Part shown: positions 16,347-20,528 of the stretch, piece by piece
Layout of the letters: every line of letters begins with the position of its first letter
How positions within the stretch are numbered: position 1 is the stretch's first letter
From: Streptomonospora litoralis
Lineage (GTDB): Bacteria; Actinomycetota; Actinomycetes; Streptosporangiales; Streptosporangiaceae
Reading direction: 5' to 3'
DNA: 64,000 nucleotides
Assembly (NCBI RefSeq): GCF_004323735.1
Contig: NZ_CP036455.1
Coordinates: 3,343,101-3,407,100, forward strand
Position numbers and translations under genes: made by a program
Notes under the pieces: generated by a model
What the model was told of the DNA's origin: nothing
Database searches by the model: none
The model's input: only the letters and a program-made list of their open reading frames with translations

Positions 16347-16535
16347 TCAGTCGTCTTCCTCTTCTCCGTCGTCGCCGCCGTCTTCGCCGCCTTCGCCCTC
16401 TTCCTGCTGCTCCTCGCCGCCGCCGTCGTCGCCGCCCTCGCCGTCGTTGCAGGCGGACAGCGAGAACACCGCGGCCAGGCCGATGGCTCCCACGGCAACC
16501 AAGCGCTTCAGCATGCCCAGAGTCGGTGTGTGCAT
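16347..16535 (-). CDS. short acidic lipoprotein
   Basis: The 62-residue precursor has a signal peptide ending in a lipobox LSAC (Cys29). The mature chain of only about 34 residues consists almost entirely of Asp, Glu, Gly and Gln. The start at 16535 has a strong GAGGAGGAG-type binding site. Its signal peptide is nearly identical to that of the next gene (the shared pattern AAVFSLxACNDG), so the two are tandem paralogues. No domain is recognised. It has no methionine in the mature part, unlike its neighbour. The location beside a molybdoenzyme and sigK-rskA suggests a place in the same envelope regulon. Confidence 0.8.
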   Translation of the reverse strand: MHTPTLGMLKRLVAVGAIGLAAVFSLSACNDGEGGDDGGGEEQQEEGEGGEDGGDDGEEEDD

Positions 16536-16659
16536 CGGTCTCCTCCTCGACGTGTCGCGTAGTTGCGCGGGCACCGTGCACCTCGCGGCGCGACCGCGGG
16601 CGCGTGTCGGCGCCGCGGCCAATGTAGCCGTTTCCCGACCGGCGGACAGCGGCCGCGGC

Positions 16660-16692
16660 GGCGGGGCCCGCGGTCGGCGCACGGGCCCCGCC
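16660..16692 (-). terminator. hairpin after the second lipoprotein gene
   Basis: A perfect 11-bp stem (16660-16670 with 16682-16692) with an 11-base loop, immediately downstream of the minus-strand stop at 16700. Confidence 0.7.
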
Positions 16693-16699
16693 TGCGTCT

Positions 16700-18901: not shown

Positions 18902-19053
18902 GCCCCTGCTTCGGAGCTACGGCGCGGGGGGCGACGACCGATTCGGTCACGAACGGATAACGCCGACTGCGCCGTTCGCGGTGCGGGGTCGCCCCGCCCA
19001 CACCCGTTCCGAATGCAGGATGGAACGTACGACAACGGTCGGAGCCGAGGACG

Positions 19054-19695
19054 GTGGCACGAGTGGAGCAGGCGATTCCGGCGCAGCCGCCCCGCCGGGC
19101 GCAGGCGGCCGAGAGCGCTGCGGGCGCAGCGGCGGGGCCGCAGGACGAAGAGTGGCTGTCAGCGCTGCTGCAACGCACCGCACTGGGCGAGCTGGACGCC
19201 TTCGAACAGGTCTACCGCGAGCTGAGCGGCCCGGTCTTCGGGCTCGTCCGCCGCGTGATGCTGGACCGTTCACAGGCCGAGGAGGTCACTCAGGAGGTGT
19301 TCACCGAGCTGTGGCGGCTGGCCGCCCGGTTCGACCCGAGCCGCGGCGGCGTGCGCTCGTGGGTACTCACCCTCGCCCACCGGCGCGCGGTGGACCGGGT
19401 GCGCTCGGAGCAGTCCTCCACCGCCCGTTTGGAGGTGGCAGGGCGCCTCGCCGAGGAGTCCTCGCCGCCCGACGACGTAGCCGAGCAGGTCGAGCACCGG
19501 TTGGAGCGCGAGAAGGTGCGCCGCTGCCTGCGCCGCTTGACCGAGCTGCAGCGCGAGACGGTGCGGCTTACCTACTACACCGGATACACCCAGCGAGAGG
19601 CCGCCGAGCTGCTGGGAGTTCCGCTGACCACGGTGAAAGGCCGACTGCGCGACGGACTGATCCGCCTGCGCGACTGCCTGGGGGTGATGCTGTGA
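19054..19695 (+). CDS. sigK: ECF RNA polymerase sigma factor SigK
   Basis: This is a 213-residue ECF sigma factor. Region 2 lies at about residues 45-112 (GPVFGLVRRVMLDRSQAEEVTQEVF) and region 4 at about 155-207 (LPLTTVKGRLRDGL-type recognition helix). The GYTQREAAELLGVPLTTVKGR segment is typical of the SigK subgroup. The GTG at 19054 is preceded by GGAGCCGAGG. The stop overlaps the start of the anti-sigma gene by 4 bases, so the two are translationally coupled. SigK directs transcription of envelope genes once RskA is inactivated. The divergent molybdoenzyme and lipoprotein genes are the likeliest local targets; no convincing SigK promoter match was found by eye. Confidence 0.93.
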   Translation: MARVEQAIPAQPPRRAQAAESAAGAAAGPQDEEWLSALLQRTALGELDAFEQVYRELSGPVFGLVRRVMLDRSQAEEVTQEVFTELWRLAARFDPSRGGVRSWVLTLAHRRAVDRVRSEQSSTARLEVAGRLAEESSPPDDVAEQVEHRLEREKVRRCLRRLTELQRETVRLTYYTGYTQREAAELLGVPLTTVKGRLRDGLIRLRDCLGVML

Positions 19696-20528
19696 GCCTG
19701 TCCGATCACGACGCGCACGGGCTGACCGCCGGATACGCGGTCGACGCGCTCAGCGGCGAGGAGCGCGAGCGCGCCCGGCGCCATATCGAGGAGTGCTCCG
19801 ACTGCCGCCGCGACCTGGCCGACTTCCACGCGACGACCGTGCGGCTGGCCTATGCCCAGTCCGAGCGGCCGTCCGAGGCCGTCTGGGACCGGCTGCGCGC
19901 CACCGTGCCGTCCGTGCGGCAGCTCCCGCCGCAGACGGCGGACTCCCTGCCGCGGGACCACCGCGGCCCCGGGGCGGACGGCCACCGGGAGCACGCCGCA
20001 TCCGGCGACGGCGACGGCGACGGCGACGGCGACGGCGACGGCGGTCGGATCGTCGGCATGGCGGCCCGACGGCGGGTGCGACGCCGGCTGCCGTGGCTGC
20101 TGGCCGCGGCCTCGGCCGTCATCGCCCTGGTGCTGGGGGGCACCGTGGTGGCGATGGACCGCCGCATGGAGTCGATGCGGGAGCACACCGCGAAAGTGGA
20201 GTCCCTGCTGGCGGCCTCCGACACCCACATGGAGGAGGAGCCGGTCAGCCACAGCAGGGCGCAGGCGACCGTGTTCACCTCCGAACGCAACGACATGGTG
20301 ATGATCATGGTCAAGGGCCTGCCGCCGGCACCCGAAGGCATGGGCTACCAGATGTGGTACGTCGACGACTCCGGCATGCGCTCGGCGGGGATGCTGGAAC
20401 GCTCCGGCGAGGGCATGTACTCGGGCATGGCCGGCGACGTGGGCTCGGCCCGGCAGTTGGGCATCAGCATGGAGCCGTCGGGCGGCATGCCCGAGCCGAG
20501 CGAGGAGCCCATGAAGGTGGAGTTGTAG
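19692..20528 (+). CDS. rskA: anti-sigma-K factor RskA with methionine-rich outer domain
   Basis: The 278-residue membrane protein has an N-terminal zinc-binding anti-sigma domain with H31-x3-C35-x2-C38. A linker containing a run of Gly-Asp pairs (about residues 104-115) leads to one transmembrane helix (about 132-154) and then a C-terminal outer RskA domain. The family sequesters SigK until site-1 and site-2 proteolysis release it. The outer domain is unusual: about 15 methionines in roughly 125 residues, several as GM or MxM pairs, which could make it a sensor of methionine oxidation or copper. GTG at 19692 overlaps the sigma-factor stop. Confidence 0.92.
   Translation: MSLSDHDAHGLTAGYAVDALSGEERERARRHIEECSDCRRDLADFHATTVRLAYAQSERPSEAVWDRLRATVPSVRQLPPQTADSLPRDHRGPGADGHREHAASGDGDGDGDGDGDGGRIVGMAARRRVRRRLPWLLAAASAVIALVLGGTVVAMDRRMESMREHTAKVESLLAASDTHMEEEPVSHSRAQATVFTSERNDMVMIMVKGLPPAPEGMGYQMWYVDDSGMRSAGMLERSGEGMYSGMAGDVGSARQLGISMEPSGGMPEPSEEPMKVEL
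20004..20040 (+). repeat. hexanucleotide microsatellite GGCGAC in rskA
   Basis: Six tandem GGCGAC-type units encode the Gly-Asp run in the cytoplasmic linker of RskA. Length changes in multiples of six would keep the frame, so linker length may vary between strains. Confidence 0.85.

What the first reader, a model, noticed from the sequence alone, without database searches (positions are those of the whole stretch)
16347..20528. Methionine-rich sigK locus: possible envelope methionine-oxidation sensing and repair system
Seen: the outer domain of RskA has about 15 methionines in roughly 125 residues. The lipoprotein at 16700-17068 has nine methionines in about 94 mature residues, set in acidic repeats. 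Between them lies a membrane-anchored molybdoenzyme of the sulfite-oxidase/YedY superfamily. Established: in Azospira a SigF/NrsF pair controls MrpX, a methionine-rich periplasmic scavenger of hypochlorite that is repaired by the YedY-type enzyme MsrP. Inference: this actinobacterial cluster is an independent analogue. RskA would sense methionine oxidation, the lipoprotein would be a sacrificial pool, and the molybdoenzyme would reduce it. The enzyme has a C-terminal dimerisation domain and so is closer to sulfite oxidase than to MsrP, which is the weak point.
Basis: partly seen in the sequence, partly recalled or inferred. Interest (0 to 1): 0.85.

Follow-up and report, generated by a model that had tools for sequence, protein, structure and literature searches.

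The report
Methionine-loaded SigK envelope-stress cassette
Some actinobacteria carry a gene switch, an exported methionine-studded lipoprotein and a molybdenum enzyme behind one shared promoter type, which looks like a separately evolved defence that senses and soaks up oxidants at the cell surface.

Summary
In detail: the RskA outer domain has 16 Met in 124 residues, the lipoprotein (lipM) 9 in 94. It is a family trait. I compared 34 genomes of Streptomonospora, Nocardiopsis and relatives with sigK and full-length rskA (one rskA is frame-broken). RskA outer domains carry 4.8-12.9% Met, against 0-5.6% in 21 other RskAs (a 22nd, set aside, has 8.1%); much of the gain replaces Leu/Ile/Val. lipM is present in 33 of the 34 with 3.7-21.5% Met, mostly one per 4-5 residues (M-E-E-E-S), no extra Cys, almost no His.
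A motif, GTCKCC-N14-TCCGAA, faces both ways between enzyme and sigK. It lies upstream of the enzyme in 35 of 35 genomes with this sigK and 0 of 7 without; those 7 have no Met-rich lipM. It recurs before a thioredoxin-fold lipoprotein/CcdA-like operon and a glycosyltransferase. So one sigma factor probably runs a small envelope redox regulon.
The logic resembles SigF/NrsF-MrpX-MsrPQ, but sigma class, anti-sigma type and enzyme clade differ. The enzyme is neither MsrP nor a proven sulfite dehydrogenase and occurs without lipM. Oxidant sensing, scavenging and repair are inferred. New variant of a known kind; interest 0.72.

The parts
16347..16535 (-). lip2: 62-aa acidic lipoprotein, no Met in the mature part; paralogue of lipM
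   Evidence: lip2-like copies with 0 Met in L063, L069, L083, L103
16700..17068 (-). lipM: Met-rich acidic lipoprotein (9 Met in 94 mature residues), proposed oxidant sponge
   Evidence: 10 of 38 homologues hit TIGR02953 at E<=0.1, best 4.8e-9, under the cut-off; the window copy itself does not hit it
17168..18901 (-). moco: membrane-anchored sulfite-oxidase-fold molybdoenzyme (PF00174), presumed Mo-ligand Cys341
18910..18935 (-). promoter-like motif GTCGCC-N14-TCCGAA reading towards moco-lipM
18988..19013 (+). promoter-like motif GTCGCC-N14-TCCGAA reading towards sigK-rskA
19054..19695 (+). sigK: ECF sigma factor, Cys158 and Cys208 conserved in 35 of 35
   Evidence: NCBIfam PRK09646 248.1 bits, cut-off 226
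19692..20528 (+). rskA: anti-sigma factor, zinc-finger part, one membrane helix, Met-loaded outer domain without Cys
   Evidence: PF10099 5.8e-25

Best explanation
A SigK/RskA-type (ECF19) sigma/anti-sigma pair, paralogous to the fasciclin-linked SigK pair in the same genome, has been turned into a methionine-based envelope oxidant response. Shown by sequence: conserved cassette, Met loading of two exported proteins, shared promoter motif, small regulon. Inferred: oxidants convert Met in the RskA outer domain to the sulfoxide; because many of these Met sit where relatives have Leu/Ile/Val, this loosens the fold, exposes RskA to proteolysis and frees SigK. SigK then transcribes its own operon, moco-lipM and, in some species, a thioredoxin-fold lipoprotein with a CcdA-like electron importer. 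lipM is the sacrificial Met pool on the outer face of the membrane. The molybdoenzyme may take part in reducing it, the least certain step.
For: sigK with full-length rskA and moco in 34 genomes, lipM in 33 of them. RskA outer Met 4.8-12.9% in 34 against 0-5.6% in 21 others; Leu+Ile+Val falls from 21.9 to 15.1% while Met rises from 2.2 to 9.5%. lipM Met median 14.9% in 33; 202 of 324 Met-to-Met distances are 4 or 5, about 60 expected by shuffling. Motif upstream of moco at 11 or 12 of 12 in 35 of 35 sigK+ and 0 of 7 sigK- genomes; one genome whose contig ends inside moco was left out. Motif at 11 or 12 upstream of the Trx/CcdA-like operon in 7 of 12 sigK+ genomes that hold it and 0 of 2 sigK-, against 7 of 1502 background windows, which include true cassette sites. 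[quoted passage not shown] MPT83/MPT70 homologues rose 6- and 3-fold with light in M. kansasii, SigK dependence not shown there (PMC9861118, passages); RskA fell on UV exposure in a soil actinobacterium (PMC8965627, passages).
Against: moco is present with no lipM in 5 sigK- genomes, and its relatives stand in fasciclin cassettes, so lipM is not its general substrate. S. alba (G120) keeps sigK-rskA but its lipM is decayed. N. trehalosi (G056) has only 3 Met in 81 with an unbroken rskA. RskA and lipM Met percentages correlate negatively over 33 genomes (Spearman -0.43, p 0.014). One RskA outside the clade (L113) also has 8.1% Met without a lipM seen beside it. dipZ, a SigK target in M. tuberculosis, did not respond to light in M. 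kansasii. No expression data for these species. The genomes are related, so counts are not independent.
Confidence: 0.58

Rival explanations
1. Copper or silver response: RskA and lipM bind Cu(I)/Ag(I) through methionine, and lipM is a metal sponge.
For: Met-rich acidic exported proteins occur in copper handling, and CcdA/thioredoxin-fold pairs in copper and cytochrome assembly (both recalled).
Against: The close spacings of Cu(I) Mets motifs (recalled) are avoided: MxM 2 seen, 48 expected; MxxM 8 seen, 47 expected (35 lipMs, residue shuffles). His is 0.2% and Cys occurs only as the lipid anchor. No copper gene was recognised directly downstream of the motif sites read.
Confidence: 0.15
2. Oxidant cassette as proposed, but the molybdoenzyme does not repair lipM: it oxidises or reduces a small molecule or another protein, and lipM is consumed or repaired by other reductases.
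For: moco occurs with no lipM in 5 sigK- genomes and with a Met-poor lipM in 2; paralogues stand with fasciclin lipoproteins; the MsrP model is far below its cut-off; the membrane part of the window enzyme has no His for haem (sequence).
Against: Shared motif, and lipM next to moco in 33 of 34 genomes with sigK and full-length rskA. Like MsrP, the enzyme lacks the Arg that SorA has five residues after the Cys.
Confidence: 0.35
3. lipM physically gates RskA: the Met-rich lipoprotein binds the outer domain as a feedback ligand and methionine has a packing role only.
For: Both proteins are Met-loaded, and a Met-rich lipM is missing in the 7 genomes without sigK.
Against: S. alba keeps the Met-rich RskA without lipM; Met contents do not rise together.
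Confidence: 0.1
4. Neutral drift or repeat slippage: acidic low-complexity lipoproteins gained Met by chance.
For: lipM is a repeat protein whose length and sequence vary; repeat copying alone can give regular spacing, and the shuffles do not allow for it.
Against: lip2, next to it and equally acidic, has no Met. Met is kept in the 33 lipMs of cassettes with sigK and rskA, and the RskA outer domain, not a repeat, is Met-loaded too.
Confidence: 0.06

Closest known systems
SigF/NrsF-MrpX-YedYZ of Azospira and BcrS/AbcS-BcrXQP of Brucella (ECF16)
   Same: ECF sigma and anti-sigma next to a Met-rich exported repeat protein and a sulfite-oxidase-superfamily molybdoenzyme; pentapeptide Met spacing (published side: passages of PMC4623255 and PMC8315932)
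   Different: SigK-type sigma; RskA instead of six-helix NrsF with Cys; acidic lipoprotein rather than MXKDX; the enzyme is not MsrP and no MsrQ-like gene was seen beside it
SigK/RskA of Mycobacterium (ECF19)
   Same: sigma and anti-sigma families, two SigK cysteines, a thioredoxin/CcdA-type target (dipZ has a SigK-dependent promoter in M. tuberculosis)
   Different: Met-loaded outer domain; no fasciclin protein in the cassette; -35-like element GTCKCC where the paralogous cassettes of the family often have CCAATC
Etrx1/Etrx2-CcdA-MsrAB2 of Streptococcus pneumoniae
   Same: surface thioredoxin-fold lipoproteins in extracellular oxidative stress (title and abstract start in the listing; the CcdA link is recalled)
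   Different: no MsrAB among the motif-bearing genes read here; a molybdoenzyme instead

Membership tests
SigK/RskA (ECF19) | SigK model over its curated cut-off | tested here: met
   PRK09646 248.1 bits, cut-off 226
SigK/RskA (ECF19) | RskA C-terminal domain next to sigK | tested here: met
   PF10099 88.6 bits, cut-off 29.4
SigK/RskA (ECF19) | two redox cysteines of SigK | tested here: met
   Cys158 and Cys208 in 35 of 35; equated with Mtb Cys133/Cys183 by position in the chain, not by alignment to Mtb or a structure
SigF/NrsF-MrpX-MsrPQ module | NrsF/DUF1109 anti-sigma with six membrane helices | tested here: not met
   the anti-sigma is RskA
SigF/NrsF-MrpX-MsrPQ module | pentapeptide MXKDX repeat protein (TIGR02953) over its cut-off | tested here: not met
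   10 of 38 members match at E<=0.1; best 36.1 bits, cut-off 41; the window copy does not match
SigF/NrsF-MrpX-MsrPQ module | induction by hypochlorite | not testable with these tools
   needs expression data
MsrP | MsrP model over its cut-off | tested here: not met
   47.8 bits, cut-off 207
MsrP | methionine sulfoxide reductase activity | not testable with these tools
   needs an assay
Sulfite dehydrogenases SorA/SoxC/SorT | curated models over cut-off | tested here: not met
   100.7/96/76.4 bits, cut-offs 600/420/570
Sulfite dehydrogenases SorA/SoxC/SorT | Arg five residues after the Mo-ligand Cys (role recalled) | tested here: not met
   CSGNSR in SorA; V346 here, invariant in the 20 rows of A3
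Cu(I) Mets-motif proteins | MxM or MxxM clusters, often with His (recalled) | tested here: not met
   2 and 8 seen, 48 and 47 expected

The most novel reading that the evidence does not exclude
The RskA outer domain is a methionine-core oxidant sensor: Leu/Ile/Val core positions were replaced wholesale by Met so that oxidation itself unfolds the domain and triggers proteolysis, with no cysteine or cofactor. Its paralogous sigma acquired a separate -35-like element to insulate the response, and the whole module evolved independently of the proteobacterial MrpX system.
Probability: 0.4. Interest if true: 0.87.

Novelty: new variant of a known kind. Interest (0 to 1): 0.72.

Why it matters
The stimuli of SigK-RskA are stated in print to remain obscure (PMC9861118, passages). 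A natural paralogue whose sensor domain is loaded with one oxidisable residue, beside a Met-rich lipoprotein and under its own promoter motif, makes that question testable. If right, it is also a second, unrelated origin of methionine cycling as an envelope defence, and a Met-based anti-sigma sensor.

Tried and rejected
Copper sponge: lowered by the Met spacing. Sulfite dehydrogenase: no curated cut-off is met and an Arg is missing. lipM having its own promoter of this kind: best match 7-9 of 12 upstream of 16 lipMs tested, so co-transcription with moco is assumed. Positive correlation of Met content in RskA and lipM: not found; it is negative. A regulon by motif alone in one genome: 4 hits against 2 for the reversed pattern in the own genome, so only sites found before the same gene in several species were used. 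The Trx/CcdA-like operon is optional: 11 of 23 sigK+ genomes searched lack a close copy, and the second copies in G214 and G152 and the more distant ones in G183, G046 and G250 score 7-8, like background. The CCAATC form of the paralogous cassettes was noticed in these same loci and then counted, so it is not an independent test; 10 cassette loci of the Met kind gave 2 hits. Predicted 3-D structure: switched off. The CcdA-like protein matched no Pfam or NCBIfam model; the name rests on the recalled motif NPCGFALLPGY. The Met-rich ORF at 58612-59010 matched no Pfam family and looks like a shadow frame. The last paper search (RskA with methionine) counted 511 papers, 20 listed; none of those listed was on this subject.

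Rows dropped or kept with a flaw: L133 (decayed rskA) was dropped from the RskA comparison. L113 (8.1% Met) and L125 (no Met in the part read) were not among the 21 other RskAs of that call; with a hydropathy-based boundary the 21 span 0-6.2%. L078, L133 and L083 were dropped from the lipM motif count. L195 (contig end) was left out of the promoter count.

Full report
Anatomy. The locus runs lip2 (16347-16535 -), lipM (16700-17068 -), moco (17168-18901 -), then divergently sigK (19054-19695 +) and rskA (19692-20528 +). Pfam and NCBIfam identify moco as PF00174, sigK by the SigK model over its cut-off, and rskA by PF10099. Close relatives include Streptomonospora sp. PA3 and S. alba. The genome holds a second sigK-rskA pair at 1.488 Mb, in a cassette moco - fasciclin lipoprotein - sigK - rskA; its RskA outer domain has 2.4% Met.

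The Met loading is a family trait. In a sample of 260 genomes of the family, 28 matched this RskA at E<=1e-27; one of them, G081, is of the other kind (29% identical), leaving 27, one of which (G121) is decayed. Among 40 genomes of the Nocardiopsis genus, 21 carry the moco of this clade; 20 of the 21 loci show sigK, rskA and lipM, and the last is cut by a contig end. Five of 6 Streptomonospora genomes match the RskA, one of them the decayed copy. Over 34 full-length RskAs the outer domain has 4.8-12.9% Met, against 0-5.6% in 21 other RskAs; Leu+Ile+Val drops from 21.9 to 15.1% as Met rises from 2.2 to 9.5%. One further RskA outside the clade, L113, which was not in that comparison, has 8.1%. 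Met columns 159, 204, 221, 234, 246, 250 and 274 replace mainly Leu, Val or Ile; 217 replaces mostly charged residues and 266 Ser. No outer domain of the 35 read has a Cys. In G049 the rskA frame is broken at the end of the membrane helix; the other 33 are unbroken over the matched length.

lipM. In the 33 cassettes with sigK, rskA and lipM the mature protein has 3.7-21.5% Met, median 14.9, and 38-60% Asp+Glu. Pooled over 35 lipMs, Cys occurs only as the lipid anchor and His is 0.2%. 202 of 324 Met-to-Met distances are 4 or 5 residues, about 60 expected; MxM and MxxM are strongly under-represented (2 against 48, 8 against 47). The expected values are from residue shuffles and do not allow for repeat copying. 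The 131 exact pentads read M-E-E-E-S by majority. 10 of 38 members hit the MXKDX pentapeptide model at E<=0.1, best 4.8e-9, below its cut-off; the window copy does not. The Brucella relative of MrpX is described as an MXKDX repeat protein (PMC8315932, passages). lip2-like proteins have no Met in the mature part in the five genomes where one was read.

Loss cases. G080 has no sigK/rskA and a lipM with 1 Met in 76. G121 lacks sigK, has a decayed rskA and 2 Met in 64. G102 has neither sigK, rskA nor lipM and keeps moco and a lip2-like protein. G018, G006, G072 and G060 have moco without sigK, rskA or lipM beside it. In G042 sigK is present, only a short C-terminal remnant of rskA is readable, and lipM has 4 Met in 64. 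Against the trend: S. alba keeps sigK-rskA with a decayed lipM, and N. trehalosi has only 3 Met in 81.

Promoter and regulon. Between moco and sigK the motif GTCKCC-N14-TCCGAA appears once in each direction, with variants. Upstream of moco it scores 11 or 12 of 12 in 35 of 35 sigK+ genomes and at most 9 in 7 of 7 sigK- genomes; upstream of sigK it scores 10-12 in 34 of 35. Fisher p for the moco motif is 3.7e-8, overstated because genomes are related. The paralogous cassettes carry CCAATC-N14-18-CGAA upstream of moco in 13 of 19 and the GTCKCC form in 0 of 19. In six Streptomonospora genomes the exact motif occurs 18 times against 3 for the reversed pattern. Seven sites are at the cassette, three upstream of a thioredoxin-fold lipoprotein followed by a CcdA-like protein, three upstream of a family-2 glycosyltransferase; five look like chance. 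The thioredoxin operon occurs in 14 of 38 genomes searched (12 of 23 sigK+; 2 of 15 without this sigK or not shown to have it). Motif scores of 11-12 lie upstream in 7 of the 12, 10 in one, background-like 9 in four, and 8 in both sigK- genomes. In M. tuberculosis dipZ, a CcdA-family gene, has a SigK-dependent promoter (PMC9861118, passages).

Enzyme. moco aligns best with SorA in the PDB (2.4e-20) but is far below each curated cut-off. It keeps the Cys that lines up with the Mo-ligand Cys (Cys341) and has Val346 where SorA has an Arg. It shares with MsrP the Cys and the WIG.P and VP..YG stretches, but has a C-terminal domain that MsrP lacks. Its membrane part shows no His in the window sequence. 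Activity cannot be read from this.

Reading. The cassette and its regulon are well supported. That the signal is an oxidant and Met the reactive group follows from composition, from the avoidance of Cu(I)-type spacing, from the redox nature of the targets and from published relatives. That moco reduces lipM is close to a guess. Papers: PMC8315932, PMC4623255, PMC7509140, PMC7406223, PMC9861118, PMC8965627 and PMC1796856 were seen as passages (also the outline and abstract of PMC7509140); others only in search listings. The original MrpX paper was not held. Searches listed no title or abstract start that describes this cassette; the library holds open-licence papers only.

None of these changes the odds given.

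Noticed in passing
window 21766-21821: A perfect 28-nt inverted repeat without spacer (56-bp palindrome) downstream of rskA; could be a terminator, a recombination site or an assembly artefact.
   Followed up: no
window 20547-22314: Dispersed GC-rich direct and inverted repeats, mostly 25-104 nt, downstream of rskA.
   Followed up: no
L220 9109-10518 (-): Near the motif-bearing glycosyltransferase lies another PF00174 enzyme with a membrane part that has His residues, as if fused to a cytochrome b-like domain (the domain is guessed from the sequence).
   Followed up: partly
L113, L075, L097: A few RskAs outside this clade are also somewhat Met-rich (8.1, 6.2 and 5.4%).
   Followed up: no
L133 7066-8718: In G121 the region between the rskA remnant and the enzyme seems deleted: the enzyme hit starts at residue 225 of the query, right beside the decayed rskA.
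   Followed up: partly
L071 98-834: rskA of G049 reads in two frames, with a stop at the end of the membrane helix: real break or sequencing error.
   Followed up: partly
window 15712-16329 (+): A P-loop (uridine-kinase-like) gene lies beside the cassette in Streptomonospora and several related genera, but was not listed at the Nocardiopsis loci; probably a neighbour only.
   Followed up: no
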